A stretch of 64,000 nucleotides of DNA from a virus. The position numbers and the translations under genes were made by a program. Shown piece after piece: positions 7,790 through 19,504 of the stretch. Each line of letters starts with the position of its first letter. Position 1 is the stretch's first letter. Below the pieces are notes generated by a model. That model was not told the DNA's origin, ran no database searches, and worked only from the letters and a program-made list of their open reading frames with translations. The stretch lies in IMG/VR virus record IMGVR_UViG_3300043465_001492, positions 1 to 64,000 of that record, one strand, 5' to 3'.

Positions 7790-7793
<4 letters not shown>
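5895..7793 (-). CDS. Tail-fibre/adhesin with two lectin-like modules and a LamG-like end
   Basis: A 632-aa virion-adhesin candidate. Near residues 51-66 it has the FSRASGATEVDSAGRI motif found at the start of phage head-spike/fibre carbohydrate-binding regions. Two related jelly-roll modules follow (about 75-265 and 290-455). Each contains SLFVKK/SLYAKAG, a DGWYR/NGWWR beta strand and a final LWGAQVEPG- or AAMGQFQR-type strand. The C-terminal 165 residues resemble a concanavalin/LamG fold (FEIQKYSVGF...YANNTLIG...ISSIRYYRRRL). It overlaps the collagen-like gene by ATGA, so the two are probably made in fixed ratio and may form one appendage. Its position between portal and prohead core genes is unusual for a fibre. 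Confidence 0.7.
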
Positions 7794-9481
<1,688 letters not shown>

Positions 9482-9485
9482 AGAG

Positions 9486-11111
9486 CTATTCTTCTAGAAT
9501 TTTAGTCATACTCTCAATCATTTTTAATTGAGCTTCATGAATTTCTTCTTTATGACTATTATCTATATATGTGTCGCCTGAGGTGCTTTCAAAATTTACT
9601 GACTCTTCATCTCCGCTAGACTCCTCTGGTGGAGACTCTTCAGCAGGTTTTTCTTCAGAGATCTCAGCGTTCATGCGCTCAATATCAGCTTCAGATTGAT
9701 TAAGTACATTGCTGCGCACCCACTTGTCACTATAGTATTTGCCAATATGAGAACTTATAGTATCAAGCATGTTTATACGTTCCCGCATAATCTCAAAGTC
9801 TTTTAATTCCGAAAAATAGTTGTCTTCAATATAGTCAACCGAAATGCCTTCGCGTATAGTTTCCCAATCATCTGTAGTGCATATTCCTTTTAATAACAAC
9901 TGCACTCGCAGTGCTTCAATAAAGAGCATTGAAAACTTTTTACGTAACCGGTTGATGAACTTTTGGAACTTGACCTCTTCACGTGATATCTCACTCGCCC
10001 TACCAATATTAAATCCAGTTTCACTCTCAAGGCGATTAACTGGTACATTTAGTGAGCGATAAAGTTTCTTTTGAAAGAAAATTACGTCTTCAATCTGGCT
10101 GAGATTGTCTCCGCCCGGGAGTGTAGTAATTTCTGTGCCACGACCACCTTCACGACGAGGCAACCAAAAGTCTTCAAGCATACTCATGCTTTTACGATCA
10201 TCACGTATTTCACCGGTGTTTGCGTCATAGACAAGTTTATTGCGATATTTCGCCATAATTCCCTGGACATACTCTTCAGCCTTACCCTTTGGCAAGTTAC
10301 CAATATCAATATAGAAAATACGACGTTCTGGTGCGCGCGATATACGATAGATCACAAGTGCGTCTTCCATCATACGCAATTGGTTAACCAACTTTACACT
10401 CTTGTGTAGATATGAAACTGCAAACTTATTGCTTTCATCAAGTAGTCCAGACGGAGCATAGACTATACTATTAGGGTCAATCTTAAAGCCACTGTTACTG
10501 TTAAAGTCGTCTGAATATAAGAAATATTCTGCGGTAACATCTGAAGTTTTTACTCCAGTAACTTTATCAACTTTGGTCGTTATTTCTTTGACCTTTTTAA
10601 TTTTTAATGGATCAATCGCACGCAGTTCCTTGATACCTTCTTTTGGCTTTTTAGGGTCAACCATCATGTGGTAATAAACCTTACCATCAATATACCACTT
10701 TCTAAAGATGTCTTGCCCGTTGTAGTTAAATGATAACAGTTTAGTAATTGTAGCAAATTCTTCAAGAATCTTTTTCTTGATGTTTTCAGGTTGTTCTAGA
10801 TTATCAAGTACTAGGTTAACTGGAGAGCCATCAGAGTCTGAGATGATTGACGCATTTATAATATCTGATATGGCAGAGTCACATTCTGGTTGAGTTGATG
10901 CCGCACGACATTTTAAAATCAGATCCTTTTCATTTGTAAGAGCAGTACCATCAATGTCAAGTACCTGTCCATAATAACCGGCAGTAGCCGATGACGTTAT
11001 AACAGAAGTACCATCGTTTTCAATTGGAGCTGAAAACGATGGTACTGTATTAAGTTCTGAGGTATCTTTTTTATTGATTACCTTTGATATTTCATAGCCA
11101 AATAGCTTCAT
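9486..11111 (-). CDS. gp20: Portal vertex protein gp20
   Basis: A 541-aa protein clearly of the T4 gp20 family. Signatures include MKLFGYEI at the N-terminus, KCRAASTQPECDSAISDIINASI, the RAPERRIFYIDIGNLPKGKAEEYV clip/stem region, the LPRREGGRGTEITTLPGG block and the NRLESETGFNIGRASEISREE helix. The portal forms the dodecameric DNA gate at the head vertex, nucleates prohead assembly and docks the terminase. The C-terminus is strongly acidic (EEKPAEESPPEESSGDEE). The gene follows the tail tube gene and is preceded by a late promoter at 11118-11125. Confidence 0.97.
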   Translation of the reverse strand: MKLFGYEISKVINKKDTSELNTVPSFSAPIENDGTSVITSSATAGYYGQVLDIDGTALTNEKDLILKCRAASTQPECDSAISDIINASIISDSDGSPVNLVLDNLEQPENIKKKILEEFATITKLLSFNYNGQDIFRKWYIDGKVYYHMMVDPKKPKEGIKELRAIDPLKIKKVKEITTKVDKVTGVKTSDVTAEYFLYSDDFNSNSGFKIDPNSIVYAPSGLLDESNKFAVSYLHKSVKLVNQLRMMEDALVIYRISRAPERRIFYIDIGNLPKGKAEEYVQGIMAKYRNKLVYDANTGEIRDDRKSMSMLEDFWLPRREGGRGTEITTLPGGDNLSQIEDVIFFQKKLYRSLNVPVNRLESETGFNIGRASEISREEVKFQKFINRLRKKFSMLFIEALRVQLLLKGICTTDDWETIREGISVDYIEDNYFSELKDFEIMRERINMLDTISSHIGKYYSDKWVRSNVLNQSEADIERMNAEISEEKPAEESPPEESSGDEESVNFESTSGDTYIDNSHKEEIHEAQLKMIESMTKILEE

Positions 11112-11117
11112 AATATA

Positions 11118-11125
11118 TATTTATA
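11118..11125 (-). promoter_or_regulatory. T4-type late promoter for gp20
   Basis: An exact TATAAATA on the minus strand, 6 nt upstream of the portal ATG (11109-11111), within the 27-nt gap after gp19. The predicted transcript would have almost no leader. Confidence 0.6.
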
Positions 11126-11138
11126 GTGCAAAAACTAA

Positions 11139-11678
11139 TTACCCAATAGTACTATCAGAAGTCCAATACTGATAGTTTAATTCAACTGTAAATTCTTCTA
11201 CAGTATCATTAGTTTCGTAATTAAGCTCAATTGCACCTATATTTGTTGGAAATGCACCCACGAATGTATATTTTTTCGTAGGGTTTGCATCTTCACGTGT
11301 TAATTGTTTGATGTGCAGGTCTTTGTAGTAACCAAGTGGAGCAGCAGTGTACGCACTTGTGTTTGAAGCATGACGATTAATCAAATTCATCCAGTTTTCA
11401 AACGCGTTGCGAATTTCCATTTTGCTGTCATTAATTACTGTGATTGTCCATGGTTCAAATGTACGATCTCCAGCAACTTTTAATTTACGTCCACGATATG
11501 GCACTTCAATAGGAGCAATAATACTACTTGGAAGTTGTGCAGCCTTAACTAAGAAACGTGACTTTAATGATGCCGTAGCACCACTGGCAACATTGCTTGG
11601 AAAATAAATTTCTGCTTCAAATAGATTTGGACGAGCTCCACCTAAAAATTGATTTTTAAATTGTGATAAATTACTCAT
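11139..11678 (-). CDS. gp19: Tail tube protein gp19
   Basis: A 179-aa protein, near T4 gp19 (163 aa). It opens MSNLSQFKNQFLGGARPNLFE, a typical tube N-terminus, then shows the beta-barrel strands with VPYRGRKLKVAGDRTFEPW, the ENWMNLINRH helix and the terminal VGAFPTNIGAIEL block. It polymerises into the inner tail tube. It lies directly downstream of the sheath gene gp18 and carries its own late promoter at 11700-11707. A paralogue is encoded at 1109-1564. Confidence 0.95.
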   Translation of the reverse strand: MSNLSQFKNQFLGGARPNLFEAEIYFPSNVASGATASLKSRFLVKAAQLPSSIIAPIEVPYRGRKLKVAGDRTFEPWTITVINDSKMEIRNAFENWMNLINRHASNTSAYTAAPLGYYKDLHIKQLTREDANPTKKYTFVGAFPTNIGAIELNYETNDTVEEFTVELNYQYWTSDSTIG

Positions 11679-11699
11679 TGTATTTTTCTATATATTTAG

Positions 11700-11707
11700 T
11701 ATTTATA
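11700..11707 (-). promoter_or_regulatory. T4-type late promoter for gp19
   Basis: An exact TATAAATA on the minus strand followed by CTAAATATA, 21 nt upstream of the gp19 ATG, in the 36-nt gap between sheath and tube genes. Confidence 0.65.
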
Positions 11708-11714
11708 CGTTTTA

Positions 11715-13430
11715 TTATGCTCCAATTTCAGTGAATGATATACCAGTGCGTGTTGCAATAAAATTAAGTGAAATATAATTAATTGAACGAGCAGGTTTGA
11801 TATAGATGTCAGCCACGAAACGATTGGTATCAATTACTTGCGGTGTATTATTTGTTTCATTACATACAACCTTATAGTCAGTAATACCACGACGTCCTTG
11901 AACGTCTCGTAAGTATGGGTCAATCGTATTAATAAATGCATTACGAGTAAATTCATCGTTTAATTCAAACAACTGGAATTTAGCAGCTTGTGCACACACA
12001 CGTTGTATTGTGATGAAAAGACGACGCACGTTTATACGATCAAATGCACTTGGACGTGTTTGGCCGGTTTTGTCTCCATAGAGAATAATCCCTTGGCCAG
12101 TAACGTTCACAATTGGATTGATATTAGAGTTGTATAAATCATCACGATCAATACTTTTTGGATTGTATGCCAACTTAGTGACTCCACGCAATTGACCACG
12201 ATTAAATCCTGCTGGTGAGAACCATGGATCAGAGATTTCATCAGTGTATGCACAGAGACCTGCCATATGACCGCATGCTGGAACCCACTCATAACGATCA
12301 GCGTACTTATTGTACACATATACAGGAGTACTATCAAATACTGTGTAACTTAAAATGCTATTGCTTGTAGATGAAAATGATTCCTTTGCGGTTTTAAGTG
12401 CAGTTAATTTTGCATCATCTGTTGATAGTGTGTATAAGTTAAGTGGAGCCGATAAAAATGCAATAGAATCTTTGCGATTCTCAACAACTGAAATTAATGC
12501 TGCATTAATTTCATTTGCATTATCACCAATAAATGCTTCAGCAAATATCAAATTAACATCAATATTATCAGTGTCTTCTAGTATGCTTAAAGAATTAACT
12601 ACATTATCAATGTCTCTTGTTCCATTAGCACCACCAACAAAGGAATAAAATCCAATTCCAGACAAAGAATATGTATCAGTTGATAATGATGCGACGTCAA
12701 GTGGAGCTGTTACATAGATAAATTCTGAACCGAGGTTAATTACATCAGCCCAATAGTTATTGGAACCATTTGAATTGCGCGCATCTGGATGCAATGAAAG
12801 ACCTTGCCAGGTTTCAAGTACTGTACCCTTTGTTCCGCTAATTAATCCTTTTTCATCATAAACTGCAATATGAATTTCGTCTGAAGCTAGTTGTGTTTCG
12901 GCAACTTCCTCTGCCCAAAGAGTAGTATCAGCTAAATTAGTGAAGAACTTTTTAGATTCTACTGAAGTAGTCCCTTGGTTGTCTTTATGAAAAATTTGTA
13001 CACTTAATGAATTACCAAGTTCACCAGGGTAACGTGAGTACAATGGAGCTTGTAATTCATTTGTTGATAAATTATCAAATTGTGTTTTGTTTTTAATTAA
13101 TGTGGCAAATTCAGATGTGCCTTCATAACCAGCAACGGCAGCAGCATTTTTTGCTGTAGCGCTATCAACTGTACGAATTGCTCTCAACGAATTTCCATAT
13201 TTAAGAAAACTTTCTGCAGTTAGGAATGACGCCGCATTGACATCATCACTTTTACTTGGTGTGCCAAAGAGTTTTCCTAATGCCGTTTCAGAACCAACAT
13301 TAGTAACTTCGTCTGCTGGACCCCAATTAAAGTGACCGACATACGCTCCGACTGATGCTGATACTGGTTGTGTTACTGGTGTCAAGTCTGTTTCTGTGAC
13401 TTGCACTCCTACGCTTTGTAAGGTTGCCAT
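11715..13430 (-). CDS. gp18: Contractile tail sheath protein gp18
   Basis: A 571-aa member of the Phage_sheath family, somewhat shorter than T4 gp18 (659 aa). Typical features are the N-terminal QVTETDLTPVTQPV, SASVGAYVGHFNWGPADEVTNVGSE with a hand-over strand, and the conserved C-terminal domain containing DRINVRRLFITIQRVCAQAAK and a final FIATRTGISFTEIG beta strand that interlocks subunits. It forms the contractile sheath around the gp19 tube. It follows the terminase and precedes the tube gene, as in T4. A late promoter at 13503-13510 gives a leader of about 70 nt. Confidence 0.96.
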   Translation of the reverse strand: MATLQSVGVQVTETDLTPVTQPVSASVGAYVGHFNWGPADEVTNVGSETALGKLFGTPSKSDDVNAASFLTAESFLKYGNSLRAIRTVDSATAKNAAAVAGYEGTSEFATLIKNKTQFDNLSTNELQAPLYSRYPGELGNSLSVQIFHKDNQGTTSVESKKFFTNLADTTLWAEEVAETQLASDEIHIAVYDEKGLISGTKGTVLETWQGLSLHPDARNSNGSNNYWADVINLGSEFIYVTAPLDVASLSTDTYSLSGIGFYSFVGGANGTRDIDNVVNSLSILEDTDNIDVNLIFAEAFIGDNANEINAALISVVENRKDSIAFLSAPLNLYTLSTDDAKLTALKTAKESFSSTSNSILSYTVFDSTPVYVYNKYADRYEWVPACGHMAGLCAYTDEISDPWFSPAGFNRGQLRGVTKLAYNPKSIDRDDLYNSNINPIVNVTGQGIILYGDKTGQTRPSAFDRINVRRLFITIQRVCAQAAKFQLFELNDEFTRNAFINTIDPYLRDVQGRRGITDYKVVCNETNNTPQVIDTNRFVADIYIKPARSINYISLNFIATRTGISFTEIGA

Positions 13431-13502
13431 ATATTTTTATCTTTCTTTCAGTGTTGTAATTATAAGTTTAAGTTGCATAATAAGAAAAATTCAATCTATC
13501 GA

Positions 13503-13510
13503 TATTTATA
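13503..13510 (-). promoter_or_regulatory. T4-type late promoter for gp18
   Basis: An exact TATAAATA on the minus strand within the 91-nt gap between the terminase C-half and the sheath gene. The remainder of the gap shows no gene or clear hairpin. Confidence 0.65.
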
Positions 13511-13521
13511 AAAAGTCACTT

Positions 13522-14640
13522 TTACAGCGCATTCCACTCTTGAAGCGATGACACTTGGCGTTCATAGTCAATCATGCTAGGAGTTTGTGATGTTTGTGGA
13601 GTATCAAATATACCAAATGGAGGCAAGTCCTCTTCCATCTCTTTAATTTTTTCACTATAGAGCAGTGATTTTAGTTCAATATTACTGAGTCCTCCAAACG
13701 CATCTGTACTTACAAACCAAGCAAAGAGTACAAGATTCATAACCATATCGTCATGTGTGTTTCCACGAGCTGCATAGCTGTCTCCCTTTGGTTCAAAACT
13801 GCTGAGTTCAACTATTGTGTCTGCGTCACATAGTTGAAGTTTACCACTCTCAAGCAGGTCTTTTAAGTTACTACAACCAATACGTTTTACACGTTTTGTC
13901 ATAGTCACCCCAATGCCACTGCTTTTTACTGAGCTTTGCACAAAAGTATTGTCATATTCATAGTCATAATAGATTGCATTACACACAACTTGTCCAGCAT
14001 CATTGTTTTCAACTATTACAAGCGCATCATTGTATGTTTTCGCGGCACGAACAATAAATTCTGGAAACATAAGTGGAGACACAAGATTATCTCTATAGGT
14101 ACACACCTGTTTAAAGACACCATCAACTCCAGATATATCAAATACTGTAAAAGTGCTGTAATCTTGACCGCGTCCTTTACTGACATCTGCGGTTATTATA
14201 TAGTCATGACCTTCAATTGGTTCAATATAATAGCGTATGCCATGTTGTAATTGCAACGGATCATATGATTGCAGCCCCAATAGAGTGTCTGAACCTATTA
14301 ATGTTTGACTACTGCCAATAAAATTACAATTATGTGAAATGATATTGTCATCATGATAAAAGGTATGAGAATTGCTAACATTAATGGGATCATATAAATC
14401 AATTGATTCGTTAACGATTTCAATATGAATAATTTTATTATTAGAGTTTATATGGTCTCCAATCTCTAATCTGTTAGCGAAAATAATATTATCATTAACG
14501 ACAAATCTATGATCAACTGAACATTTTATGATTTTATTTGTAGATAGTGTTAATTTGATATATTTGTCGTGTACAGTTTTTCGCACACCATCAAATTTAA
14601 CATATTCACCATCACCATTTTTAATTAAAACGTTTTGCAT
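13522..14640 (-). CDS. gp17: Split intein C-fragment fused to the nuclease half of large terminase gp17
   Basis: A 372-aa precursor. Residues 1-104 are a C-intein: a block B-like SVDH (H44), a block F with LYDPINV...HTFYHDD, and the terminal IISHN followed by Cys105 (block G: His103, Asn104, Cys+1). Residues 105-372 are the C-extein, starting CNFIGSSQTLIGSD. It carries the RNase H-like terminase nuclease, with DVSKGRGQDYS (first catalytic Asp), VIVENNDAG (second acidic site) and THDDMVMNL (third). Trans-splicing with the product of 15249-16142 would give a 532-aa gp17, close to other exo-T-even large terminases. The ATG is one base after the stop of the homing endonuclease gene. No ordinary gp17 copy is seen in the window. 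Confidence 0.93.
   Translation of the reverse strand: MQNVLIKNGDGEYVKFDGVRKTVHDKYIKLTLSTNKIIKCSVDHRFVVNDNIIFANRLEIGDHINSNNKIIHIEIVNESIDLYDPINVSNSHTFYHDDNIISHNCNFIGSSQTLIGSDTLLGLQSYDPLQLQHGIRYYIEPIEGHDYIITADVSKGRGQDYSTFTVFDISGVDGVFKQVCTYRDNLVSPLMFPEFIVRAAKTYNDALVIVENNDAGQVVCNAIYYDYEYDNTFVQSSVKSSGIGVTMTKRVKRIGCSNLKDLLESGKLQLCDADTIVELSSFEPKGDSYAARGNTHDDMVMNLVLFAWFVSTDAFGGLSNIELKSLLYSEKIKEMEEDLPPFGIFDTPQTSQTPSMIDYERQVSSLQEWNAL
14329..14640 (-). other. C-terminal split-intein coding segment (IntC, 104 aa)
   Basis: This covers codons 1-104 of the downstream terminase ORF. Its length (104 residues) and the LYDPINV and SHNC motifs match the atypically split terminase inteins of the AceL-TerL type, in which the break lies very near the intein N-terminus and most of the fold is in IntC. 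Catalytic residues are intact: block B His44, penultimate His103, Asn104 and Cys+1. Confidence 0.92.
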
Positions 14641-14641
14641 A

Positions 14642-15277
14642 CTACAAATCTTTTACATACCCATATATTGCAACTGGAGTGACATTAAAAAAACGAGCAA
14701 TAACATTGGAAAAAACTCTTTGTTTGGTAAGTATTCTTCCATTTTTTGATTTTTTACCAATATCTGGATGGTCAAACGTAGTATATTGTTCTATTAGTAG
14801 AGCAATATCATTATCATTTAATTTAAATGCCGCCTTTTTTCCACGTCTATTTTTTGATATTTTTTCTCGCACTTCTGGATTATCATTATAAAATTTTTTA
14901 CTTCTATTAGATCTAATTTCAAATCCTTCACGCTTAGCTCGTCCCTTTGCTGCTAAAGACATTTTCTGTCTAGATTCATCGTCGAATTTATAACCAAATG
15001 TAGTAAATGACGATGAATTGTGTCCATACCCTTTTCCGCTTTTAGTAGAATTTAATCCATTATTAAATGTATCATATTCATCTATTGCTTTTTCTTCTGC
15101 TATTTCAATGACAGATCTATCATCAGATTCTAGCAATATTTCATATTCAAAATCATAACCTTTAAATTTATCACTTATTTTATGTTGGGACATTCTATTT
15201 TTTAGTCTATAATCAATAGTGATACCAATATATTTTTGACCATCACTTCTAGTTATTTTGTAAAGGATATGTTTCAT
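14642..15277 (-). CDS. GIY-YIG homing endonuclease between the terminase halves
   Basis: A 211-aa free-standing endonuclease. The N-terminal domain (about 1-90) is GIY-YIG type. ILYKITRSDGQKYIGIT supplies the two tyrosine-bearing strands, arginines follow in DYRLKNRMSQHK, and a likely catalytic Glu lies in the IAEEKAIDEYDT helix before GLNSTKSGKG. A NUMOD3-like motif (FDDESRQKMSLAAKGR, about 108-123) and a C-terminal helix-turn-helix (IARFFNVTPVAIYGYVK) would bind the target. The ORF overlaps the upstream terminase-IntN ORF by 29 nt and ends one base before the IntC-terminase ATG. This places it exactly at the break of the split intein, so it is inferred to drive homing of the whole split-intein unit into intact gp17 genes. 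Confidence 0.9.
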   Translation of the reverse strand: MKHILYKITRSDGQKYIGITIDYRLKNRMSQHKISDKFKGYDFEYEILLESDDRSVIEIAEEKAIDEYDTFNNGLNSTKSGKGYGHNSSSFTTFGYKFDDESRQKMSLAAKGRAKREGFEIRSNRSKKFYNDNPEVREKISKNRRGKKAAFKLNDNDIALLIEQYTTFDHPDIGKKSKNGRILTKQRVFSNVIARFFNVTPVAIYGYVKDL

Positions 15278-16142
15278 ATAAATTCTTAAGTTTGACTTTA
15301 ACTTTTTTGTTATTTATAATAACATCAACTTCAGAATCACCTGATAAACATTCAAATTCCTGAGTAAATTGTAGTTCACTACTGTTTGCAATTGTCTGAC
15401 GTTTCCATTCCTCATCTCGTCCTGGCACATCATTCCAACGAATTGTAAATGATTGAAACTCATTTGTGCCCTGTATTGCTCCCTCCCAAAGCTTATAAAA
15501 CATATTACCAACTCCATTAGGAGTGCTCGTTATTATAACCTTTGTATCTTTACCAGAAGAAATAACTGGGTAGGTACTCGTATAAAACTCGTTTGCTCCA
15601 TGCACGAACGCAAACTCGTCAAGGAAGATAACATTCATTGACAAGCCACGAATACTTGAACCACTTGTTGCTGCAGCAATAACTTCAGAGTTATTACTAA
15701 ATTTTATGTTTCCTTTATTTAGGATTTTGCAACCAGGTTGCAAGAAAAATGGTAAGTTTTCAAGCATAAGTGTAAGACGACTCAACATCTCACGCGCAGT
15801 CGCCCCTTTGTTTGCTAGTATACCTATTTTCTTATCAGGGTTAAATATTGCATAATGTAACAACCATGCAACACTTGTCACAGACTTTCCGCTTTGACGA
15901 CACGCAAGTACAATACTAAATCTGTTGTGCGTAAAGTGATCGACCATCTTTTCTTGATAGCCGCGCAACTTAAAATTTACGAGTCCACGATCAAGATTTA
16001 TAACCTTTACATAGTGTTCAGCAAAGTATGACACACTCGCCATACATTTTTTATACTCAGATATTTCATGAGCGGTAAACTGTTGTTGAATACCGTCTCT
16101 CTTGATATATGGATTGCCATTATACGAATCTGGAGTAGTCAT
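15249..16142 (-). CDS. gp17: ATPase half of large terminase gp17 fused to a split intein N-fragment
   Basis: A 297-aa precursor. Residues 1-264 are the N-extein: the packaging ATPase with a Walker A variant CRQSGKS (81-87), Walker B plus catalytic Glu in VIFLDEFAFV (about 171-180) and a coupling motif around IITSTPNG (203-210). Residues 265-297 are a 33-aa N-intein starting with Cys265 in CLSGDSEVDV (intein block A). The extein sequence breaks at QEFE, just where T4-type terminases continue into the FxGSSxTLI stretch found at the start of the other ORF. The start ATG overlaps the gp16 stop (ATGA). The gene ends in TAG inside the start region of the endonuclease gene. The N-half alone lacks the nuclease. 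Confidence 0.93.
   Translation of the reverse strand: MTTPDSYNGNPYIKRDGIQQQFTAHEISEYKKCMASVSYFAEHYVKVINLDRGLVNFKLRGYQEKMVDHFTHNRFSIVLACRQSGKSVTSVAWLLHYAIFNPDKKIGILANKGATAREMLSRLTLMLENLPFFLQPGCKILNKGNIKFSNNSEVIAAATSGSSIRGLSMNVIFLDEFAFVHGANEFYTSTYPVISSGKDTKVIITSTPNGVGNMFYKLWEGAIQGTNEFQSFTIRWNDVPGRDEEWKRQTIANSSELQFTQEFECLSGDSEVDVIINNKKVKVKLKNLYETYPLQNN
15252..15350 (-). other. N-terminal split-intein coding segment (IntN, 33 aa)
   Basis: Codons 265-297 of the upstream terminase ORF. The segment opens with Cys1 and the CLSGDSEV block A signature, then a short basic beta hairpin. At 33 residues it is far shorter than the roughly 100-residue IntN of canonical split inteins such as Npu DnaE, placing it in the atypically split class. 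Confidence 0.9.
15311..15318 (-). promoter_or_regulatory. Late-promoter sequence embedded in the IntN coding region
   Basis: An exact TATAAATA on the minus strand, inside the codons for Ile-Ile-Asn-Asn of the N-intein, 33 nt upstream of the homing endonuclease ATG (15275-15277). The distance suits a late transcript for the endonuclease and the IntC-terminase ORF. It could be a chance match in AT-rich DNA. Confidence 0.45.
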
Positions 16143-16597
16143 TCAACATCAATAGGTTCATCTCTATTAGCATCACCTCTCAACAACTTTTGCAGTTCTG
16201 TAGTGGTGCCAACAAATATAGCATTATTTGTAGTACTTTGAGCAGCAGGTTGTCCTCGTTTATCGTCAACCTGTATAATTTTTTTGCGTTCTTTTTGCAG
16301 TCCTAATAACTGTCCATTTATATCAGCTGCAGTTTTTATCATGCCAGCAAGGACTTCGAATGCGCGTGGATGTTCAGCATCACTTGCAAGAGCATGCATT
16401 GTACTTATGGCCTCATCACTCGTGTCTATAAGTTTTTTAATACGTTCACGAGCAAATCGATAATCTTCCTCAGCGTGCAGCACAATTTCGTCATGCGATG
16501 GACCAACTGGTGCGCCATCCGCAATTGCAATCTCGTGTTTTACTGGTAAAACGTTTTTTTCAAGAGACGCTAGTATGCTGTCTTTGTCTTTTTTCAT
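16139..16597 (-). CDS. gp16: Small terminase subunit gp16
   Basis: A 152-aa protein, near T4 gp16 (164 aa). It has a central helical oligomerisation region (EEDYRFARERIKKLIDTSDEAISTM, then a helical hairpin with GMIKTAADINGQLLGLQKERKKI). The C-terminal tail ends in a TELQKLLRG-type segment that contacts the large subunit in related phages. gp16 recognises DNA and stimulates the gp17 ATPase. It sits between gp15 and gp17 with ATGA overlaps on both sides, indicating coupled translation of gp15-gp16-gp17. Confidence 0.92.
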   Translation of the reverse strand: MKKDKDSILASLEKNVLPVKHEIAIADGAPVGPSHDEIVLHAEEDYRFARERIKKLIDTSDEAISTMHALASDAEHPRAFEVLAGMIKTAADINGQLLGLQKERKKIIQVDDKRGQPAAQSTTNNAIFVGTTTELQKLLRGDANRDEPIDVE

Positions 16598-18319: not shown

Positions 18320-19066
18320 CTAACCCATGTAAAAATCTGGGGGCATTTGATACTTGGTATCAAAATCAGTCTCAATCTTTTCAATATCAGCAATTGCATC
18401 TTCATAGATTGCACGACCATTTATCGTAACTCCACCTGGAAGAGTCATGCCTTCAAATTTCAGCAAATTTGTCCCCCATTGTTTTTTTAACAGTGCGGTA
18501 AGATATTTTTTAAGAAGCATATCATTGTACACGTCAGTAAAATCATTTGGGTTGATGGTTTGATAACCTTCAATTATAATATACTGACCAATATTTACAT
18601 AAGTTTTCCAGTCGTCTTGAATGCTCAGACGATTCATGTGACGAGTAAATATAATCTGCTGAGTTGAGCCTGTAAGTATAAGCTCAATCGAGTTCATATA
18701 CTGTTTCGTCATCTCATAGTTGATGAGTGAGTCAGGTTTGCGTAGTCCATACAGATCATTTAAAAACATCTGATATTTAACGCTAAACATATCAGCAGCA
18801 TCACCGCTGCTCAAGTTTAGGACGCGAAGTACACTAATAAGTTGATCGGGTAGAGTAATATAGTTGTTGTCATAGTCTGCTTGAGTGACCTGATGCTTTA
18901 AGAATGTGCGCACAACCGCGTCGCTATGATACTCTTGATAAAACTGAAGTGCCTCATCGATACGATCCTCAATCTGATCTTCATCGATGTTGATTTCGAG
19001 TACTGGAGCACCGAGTGCTCTTAAACAATAGTCTGCTAATTCTTGGCGTGATGCTGGTTTTGCCAT
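18320..19066 (-). CDS. gp13: Neck protein gp13
   Basis: A 248-aa protein of the gp13 family: KPASRQELADYCLRALGAPVLEINIDEDQIEDRIDEALQFYQEYH at the N-terminus, ending in a DFDTKYQMPPDFYMG tail. gp13 is the adaptor that closes the portal vertex after DNA packaging. It is shorter than T4 gp13 (309 aa) but typical of exo-T-even versions. An exact late promoter lies 8 nt upstream of its ATG. It starts the contiguous neck-terminase-tail-portal series. Confidence 0.93.
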   Translation of the reverse strand: MAKPASRQELADYCLRALGAPVLEINIDEDQIEDRIDEALQFYQEYHSDAVVRTFLKHQVTQADYDNNYITLPDQLISVLRVLNLSSGDAADMFSVKYQMFLNDLYGLRKPDSLINYEMTKQYMNSIELILTGSTQQIIFTRHMNRLSIQDDWKTYVNIGQYIIIEGYQTINPNDFTDVYNDMLLKKYLTALLKKQWGTNLLKFEGMTLPGGVTINGRAIYEDAIADIEKIETDFDTKYQMPPDFYMG

Positions 19067-19073
19067 AATATAT

Positions 19074-19081
19074 TATTTATA
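19074..19081 (-). promoter_or_regulatory. T4-type late promoter for gp13
   Basis: An exact TATAAATA on the minus strand, 7 nt before the gp13 ATG, in the 21-nt gap after the 138-aa ORF. Confidence 0.65.
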
Positions 19082-19087
19082 AGACTA

Positions 19088-19504
19088 TTATGGAACCTCA
19101 GGATAATTAGTTGTCTTCACATATGAAGAAGTAATCTTTGCGGCAGAGAAACCATTATTCCATGTTGTTACCAACCAAGGACGGCCTTCATAACTATAAG
19201 CTCTGGCTATTTCTCCAAGTGTAGAATTTAAATAGAGCCAAACGCCAGTTTCATATCTTACAACTTCATCTCCATAAACATATGTTTCGTTACCATATGG
19301 TGCATATCCAATCGGAGCCATCTTACGCCAACTTTGTCCGCCAACAAAACCAGAACTTTGGTCTCCCGGAGTGTTGTACCATGGACCGTCCATTAACACC
19401 CATGCTGTAGCATCTGGTTCAGCAGCATTTGCTGGATTATCACTACCAATAGTAGCAACTGGATTGACATATTTGTATGCCAAATTTAATCCTAGGCCTA
19501 ACAT
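19088..19504 (-). CDS. Uncharacterised small protein beside the neck genes
   Basis: A 138-aa protein rich in Tyr, Trp and Gly (PWYNTPGDQSSGFVGGQSW, YGNETYVYGDEVVRYETGVWLYLN). The N-terminal 12 residues (MLGLGLNLAYKY) are mildly hydrophobic but no real signal peptide is seen. The aromatic beta-rich composition suggests a structural or surface-exposed virion protein. It lies between a small beta protein and gp13, with a 4-nt gap to its upstream neighbour, so they are probably co-expressed. No family is recognised. Confidence 0.6.
   Translation of the reverse strand: MLGLGLNLAYKYVNPVATIGSDNPANAAEPDATAWVLMDGPWYNTPGDQSSGFVGGQSWRKMAPIGYAPYGNETYVYGDEVVRYETGVWLYLNSTLGEIARAYSYEGRPWLVTTWNNGFSAAKITSSYVKTTNYPEVP

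What the first reader, a model, noticed from the sequence alone, without database searches (positions are those of the whole stretch)
13522..16142. Large terminase gp17 broken by an atypically split intein, with a GIY-YIG endonuclease gene in the gap
Seen: ORF 15249-16142 ends with a 33-aa N-intein (Cys1, block A CLSGDSEV) fused after QEFE. ORF 13522-14640 starts with a 104-aa C-intein ending ISHN, then Cys+1, then the terminase nuclease half. The 211-aa ORF between them is a GIY-YIG/NUMOD3-type endonuclease. All catalytic residues of intein, ATPase and nuclease appear intact. Known: atypically split terminase inteins of the AceL-TerL type have a very short IntN and an IntC of about this size and motif set. 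'Fractured genes' with a homing endonuclease between split-intein halves have been described from marine metagenomes. Inference: DNA packaging in this phage depends on protein trans-splicing, and the endonuclease spreads the whole unit into intact gp17 genes. This is the strongest candidate for a novel system in the window.
Basis: partly seen in the sequence, partly recalled or inferred. Interest (0 to 1): 0.93.

Follow-up and report, generated by a model that had tools for sequence, protein, structure and literature searches.

The report
Phage packaging motor split by intein
The gene for this phage's DNA-packaging motor is broken in two by a split intein, which should re-join the two protein halves, with a homing-endonuclease gene in the gap; this is a clear new example of a known kind, also found in cultured phages, whose relatives show the endonuclease gene moving between phages.

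Summary
A T4-like gp17 (terminase large subunit) gene is split into an ATPase half ending in a 33-aa N-intein and a nuclease half starting with a 104-aa C-intein. A 211-aa GIY-YIG endonuclease gene sits between them. No second gp17 exists in the 106.6-kb record. The joined exteins match T4 gp17 and break between residues 353 and 354, next to the hinge. 77 of the 80 closest viral gp17 genes are uninterrupted at exactly this point. The intein halves resemble the AceL/GOS-TerL type (PDB 6DSL).

The arrangement itself is known: Aeromonas phage PX29 is annotated this way in GenBank, and Providencia, Serratia and Vibrio isolates carry it too. So this is a new member of a known kind.

New here: all 23 IMG/VR contigs holding close homologues of this endonuclease carry it in a split intein at this same gp17 site. 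In one pair of relatives a sharp conversion tract covers the N-intein plus endonuclease but not the C-intein or exteins. One relative (L115) has gp17 in three pieces with two split inteins. Trans-splicing and DNA cutting remain untested.

The parts
15351..16142 (-). N-extein of gp17: ATPase half (264 aa), Walker A RQSGKS, Walker B FLDE, STPNG
   Evidence: Terminase_6N E 2.8e-25; aligns to T4 gp17 86-351; motifs
15252..15350 (-). N-intein fragment, 33 aa (Cys1, block A CLSGDSEV); stop at 15249-15251
   Evidence: block A aligns to the DNA polymerase II intein 5BKH (E 0.51)
14642..15277 (-). GIY-YIG homing-endonuclease gene, 211 aa; start overlaps the N-intein ORF by 29 nt, stop is 1 nt before the C-intein ATG
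14329..14640 (-). C-intein fragment, 104 aa (block B His44, block G IISHN)
   Evidence: 6DSL CatC E 2.6e-9; invariant H44, Y83, H103, N104
13522..14328 (-). C-extein of gp17: Cys+1, then the nuclease half (268 aa); acidic residues in ADVSKGRGQDY, VENND, HDDMV
   Evidence: Terminase_6C E 1.9e-12; aligns to T4 gp17 356-559 and to the nuclease-domain structure 3C6A
16139..16597 (-). gp16, terminase small subunit; stop overlaps the gp17 start (ATGA)
   Evidence: phrog_445 E 5e-30

Best explanation
This is a fractured gp17 gene. The terminase large subunit is made as two precursors, ATPase-IntN and IntC-nuclease. The two intein fragments should bind, splice in trans (Cys1, Cys+1, terminal Asn) and ligate QEFE to CNFIGSS, giving a 532-aa terminase. 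The gene in the gap encodes a GIY-YIG homing endonuclease that cuts gp17 alleles lacking it, so that repair copies it in. In relatives the copied stretch was IntN plus endonuclease. Shown: gene anatomy, homology, exact empty sites, patchy distribution, the site-dedicated endonuclease family, and a transfer tract in relatives. Inferred: trans-splicing in this phage, the need for it in packaging, and DNA cleavage by the endonuclease.
For: Joined exteins match T4 gp17 on both sides of residue 353/354. 77 of 80 close relatives are uninterrupted there. The intein is of AceL/GOS-TerL type, with His44, Tyr83 and terminal His-Asn invariant over 9 loci. No other gp17 is in the record. No RNA family is found in the window, and the gap is fully coding. 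Endonuclease catalytic residues are kept and its fold matches I-TevI. In all 23 contigs whose endonuclease matches at E < 1e-25, the gene lies in a split intein at this gp17 site. L121 versus L124: mismatches are 15.2% (N-extein), 1.4% (IntN), 2.0% (endonuclease), 23.1% (IntC), 14.8% (C-extein); tract versus flanks p 5e-22 and 1e-27. T4 gp17 split at the linker loses translocation (PMC3012670). IntN, endonuclease and IntC are conserved: dN/dS 0.20-0.26 against L108.
Against: No experiment was run. The window's endonuclease scores just under the Pfam cut-off for GIY-YIG, and the C-intein well under the Pfam intein cut-off. A co-conversion signature at the window's own insertion was not distinguishable from variation among intein-free pairs. 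Window and L108 show no excess similarity of the element over the exteins. The record may be incomplete, so an uninterrupted gp17 outside it cannot be strictly excluded.
Confidence: 0.9

Rival explanations
1. The two halves work unspliced as a two-subunit terminase, like the 'genes-in-pieces' ribonucleotide reductase; the intein halves are relics.
For: The break lies between two domains that keep ATPase and nuclease activity separately in T4 (PMC3012670).
Against: The same source reports complete loss of DNA translocation when the linker is cut. Intein residues needed for splicing are invariant across distant loci, and both fragments evolve under constraint.
Confidence: 0.05
2. The message is repaired before or during translation: a group I intron or programmed frameshifts restore one continuous gp17-intein frame.
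For: gp17 of Campylobacter phage IBB_35 was described as having both an intein and an intron (PMC3322345).
Against: No Rfam family matches anywhere in the window. The gap is wholly filled by the endonuclease ORF, which overlaps the N-intein ORF and ends 1 nt before the C-intein ATG, leaving no room for a ribozyme. Cultured phages with the same three-ORF layout exist.
Confidence: 0.02
3. The gene is dead, or the break is an assembly artefact.
For: Metagenome-derived record of unknown completeness.
Against: A second record is identical over 5,829 bp. No stop codons or frameshifts interrupt the halves. Constraint is visible. The same arrangement occurs in many independent contigs and in phage isolates.
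Confidence: 0.02

Closest known systems
Aeromonas phage PX29 gp17A/gp17B (GU396103)
   Same: Cultured T4-like phage; gp17 interrupted at nearly the same place; record notes name a putative N-intein, a GIY-YIG endonuclease and a C-intein.
   Different: Endonuclease is fused in frame to the C-intein (two ORFs, not three) and is of SegE type; insertion one codon earlier, QEH|C.
Providencia phage PSTRCR_127 and Serratia phage 92A1 gp17
   Same: Three ORFs in the same order: N-extein-IntN, GIY-YIG, IntC-C-extein.
   Different: Endonucleases only about 20% identical; insertion after QEH; not annotated as inteins.
AceL-TerL and GOS-TerL atypically split inteins (consensus Cat, PDB 6DSL)
   Same: Large-terminase host protein, very short IntN (25, 37 and 30 aa reported, PMC11766414) with 104-aa IntC in Cat, Cys+1, sequence similarity E 2.6e-9.
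   Different: GOS-TerL uses Ser1, this one Cys1. Those were shown to splice; this one is untested.
'Fractured genes' of Dassa et al. 2009 (own knowledge; paper not held)
   Same: Split intein halves with a free-standing endonuclease gene between them in an essential phage gene.
   Different: As recalled, their new endonuclease family is Vsr-like. Here it is GIY-YIG; L046, L002, L111 and Va1 carry DUF559/Vsr-like ones at the same gp17 site (for L111 and Va1 by sequence resemblance only).

Membership tests
Fractured gene (split intein with free-standing endonuclease between the halves) | One conserved gene in two ORFs, each ending or starting with a complementary intein fragment | tested here: met
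Fractured gene (split intein with free-standing endonuclease between the halves) | Uninterrupted homologues match the joined exteins exactly at the junction | tested here: met
   77 of 80 with gap 0
Fractured gene (split intein with free-standing endonuclease between the halves) | Endonuclease gene in the gap | tested here: met
   GIY-YIG type, not Vsr-like
Fractured gene (split intein with free-standing endonuclease between the halves) | Trans-splicing yields the ligated protein | not testable with these tools
   Needs co-expression of the halves
AceL/GOS-TerL-type atypically split intein | Sequence homology to the characterised members | tested here: met
   CatC of 6DSL E 2.6e-9
AceL/GOS-TerL-type atypically split intein | Short IntN (about 25-37 aa), IntC of about 100 aa, in TerL | tested here: met
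   33 and 104 aa; sizes from PMC11766414
AceL/GOS-TerL-type atypically split intein | Same insertion residue in TerL as AceL/GOS | tested here: inconclusive
   Original papers not held; CatC keeps Cys after the intein end
GIY-YIG homing endonuclease | Catalytic residues (Y, Y, R, H, E, N) and GIY-YIG fold | tested here: met
   Y6, Y16, R28, H32, E61/62, N72/73; I-TevI 1LN0 top fold hit, probability 1.00, TM 0.64 by target length; Pfam just below cut-off, homologue L083 above it
GIY-YIG homing endonuclease | Patchy distribution and transfer independent of the host gene | tested here: met
   Six changes on a 45-row tree, window nested among intein-free rows; conversion tract in relatives L121/L124, not shown for the window itself
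GIY-YIG homing endonuclease | Cuts the empty gp17 site | not testable with these tools
   Needs a cleavage assay

The most novel reading that the evidence does not exclude
The mobile unit is not the whole intein but an IntN-plus-endonuclease cassette that moves by gene conversion between gp17 genes already holding a C-intein. This would explain why these inteins are split near their N-terminus and why unrelated endonucleases (GIY-YIG, Vsr-like) occupy the same gap.
Probability: 0.4. Interest if true: 0.6.

Novelty: new member of a known kind. Interest (0 to 1): 0.42.

Why it matters
An essential motor whose two catalytic domains must be ligated after translation makes virion assembly depend on a selfish element. 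The close empty-site relatives and the conversion tract give a natural system for testing how an endonuclease gene splits and moves with an intein. The intein is a new naturally split, short-IntN candidate for protein labelling, and the three-piece gp17 in L115 would be a natural case of two trans-splicing reactions in one protein.

Tried and rejected
Co-conversion at the window's own site: the first 120 bp after the junction are unusually divergent from relatives (for example 31% against 6% with L021), but several intein-free pairs show the same dip (33% against 5% for L015/L021), so this is not evidence of homing here. An IntC profile of nine sequences was too diverse for a collection scan. 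Endonuclease relatives in cellular genomes: none found. The structure of the C-intein-nuclease ORF was too poor to use (pLDDT 44). A group I intron was rejected. Dassa 2009, Bachmann and Mootz 2015 and Stevens 2018 are not held, so claims about them rest on a review or on my own knowledge. Distance correlations between endonuclease and terminase were positive but not informative on transfer. The high identity at the start of the L124/L126 insert may reflect overlapping reading frames rather than conversion.

Full report
WHAT IS THERE. On the minus strand of a 106,636-bp virus record, between gp16 (terminase small subunit) and gp18 (tail sheath) in T4 gene order, gp17 is in two ORFs with a third between them. 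The first ORF (15249-16142) holds the ATPase half ending QEFE, followed by a 33-aa N-intein. The last ORF (13522-14640) starts with a 104-aa C-intein ending IISHN, then Cys and the nuclease half. The middle ORF (14642-15277) is a 211-aa endonuclease. It overlaps the first ORF by 29 nt and stops one base before the ATG of the last, so translation is probably coupled (inference from sequence). G+C is 38% in both exteins and 22-28% in every part of the insert. No second gp17 is found in the record, and a second IMG/VR contig is identical over 5,829 bp.

THE EXTEINS. The N-extein aligns to T4 gp17 residues 86-351 and the C-extein to 356-559, so the break maps to residues 353/354, beside the hinge joining ATPase and nuclease domains. 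In T4, cutting gp17 at that linker keeps both enzymatic activities but abolishes DNA translocation (PMC3012670). ATPase and nuclease motifs are intact. Of the 80 closest viral contigs by N-extein, 77 run through this point with no insertion. The other three are a copy of the window locus (L004), L046 and L083. The closest empty alleles have Val, not Cys, at +1.

THE INTEIN. The C-intein's best solved relative is CatC (6DSL), built from GOS-TerL and AceL-TerL. A review gives IntN lengths of 25 (AceL), 37 (GOS) and 30 aa (Cat), with a 104-aa IntC for Cat (PMC11766414). Across nine C-inteins from distant phages, His44, Ala55, Tyr83, His103 and Asn104 are invariant.

THE ENDONUCLEASE. Pfam scores GIY-YIG at 22.1 bits against a cut-off of 22.6; a homologue (L083) scores 30.5. 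The catalytic residues are present and the predicted fold matches the I-TevI catalytic domain (probability 1.00). A profile scan of IMG/VR returned 30 loci. The 23 contigs with E below 1e-25 all place the gene in a split intein at this gp17 site, including very divergent terminases; some contigs show only one side of the split. The six weaker hits whose surroundings were read are not in a split gp17. The family therefore looks dedicated to this site.

KNOWN EXAMPLES. Aeromonas phage PX29 is annotated with gp17A 'putative N-intein' and gp17B 'putative GIY-YIG endonuclease and C-intein'. Providencia PSTRCR_127 and Serratia 92A1 have the same three-ORF layout as the window. Vibrio 1.244.A, K469 and VP-1 have the endonuclease fused behind IntN; in PX29 and, with a Vsr-like enzyme, in Vibrio Va1 and L002 it is fused before IntC. 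The insertion point varies by one codon either way: QEH|C, QEFE|C, QEFGN|C. L046 and L111 have unrelated DUF559/Vsr-like endonucleases in the same gap. MIJ3 PolB is a published split-intein case with an HNH enzyme (PMC6892783).

EVIDENCE FOR MOVEMENT. On a tree of 45 gp17 proteins, carrier against intein-free needs at least six changes, and the window lies inside an intein-free group (97% identical to L010); the count cannot separate gain from loss. The clearest evidence is a pair of relatives. L121 and L124 differ by 15.2% in the N-extein, 1.4% in IntN, 2.0% in the endonuclease, 23.1% in IntC and 14.8% in the C-extein; tract against flanks p = 5e-22 and 1e-27. The left edge lies between 15 bases upstream of the splice junction and the junction region itself; the right edge lies between insert positions 673 and 807, around the endonuclease stop at 790. 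Four-fold sites agree (0-4% in the tract, 35-40% outside) and L122 repeats the pattern on the N side. So what moved was IntN plus endonuclease, into an allele that apparently already had a C-intein. At the window's own site the comparable signal is not above background.

JUDGEMENT. The trans-splicing reading is strong by anatomy and homology, and its function remains to be tested. The system is a new member of a known kind. What goes beyond the records I could read is the site-dedicated endonuclease family, the IntN-endonuclease conversion tract, and the doubly split gp17 of L115. I could not read the founding papers, so priority on these points is not settled.

Noticed in passing
L115 787-4745 (IMGVR_UViG_3300042458_000828): gp17 in three pieces with two split inteins: one before Walker B (IntN fused to another GIY-YIG/NUMOD3-like enzyme), one at the hinge with the window's endonuclease family. 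Two trans-splicing steps would be needed; one contig only.
   Followed up: partly
L083, L094-L097, just after the endonuclease stop: In all five contigs the C-intein frame has no ATG, GTG or TTG start and lies in the -1 frame to the endonuclease; a rare start codon or a -1 frameshift giving an endonuclease-C-intein fusion is possible.
   Followed up: partly
L128 about 2850-2992 and L129 about 2830-2963: N-inteins after QEFE appear to start with Ser (SVVGST, SCVYST) with Cys at +1, the rare Ser1/Cys+1 pairing known from GOS-TerL.
   Followed up: no
L089 (Vibrio phage VP-1), L103 (vB_VmeM-32), L101 (Campylobacter CP21), L086 (E. coli phiS): gp17 is hit by inteins at Walker A and Walker B as well as at the hinge, contiguous or split; CP21 appears to carry three inteins in one gp17.
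   Followed up: partly
window 11,100-14,100 and 18,600-19,300: 97-100% identical to intein-free contig L021 over most of these stretches, but mostly 72-95% identical to any relative in between, so the gp17 region is mosaic.
   Followed up: partly
window 7790-9481 (-): 563-aa protein with long collagen-like G-x-y repeats next to the portal gene.
   Followed up: no
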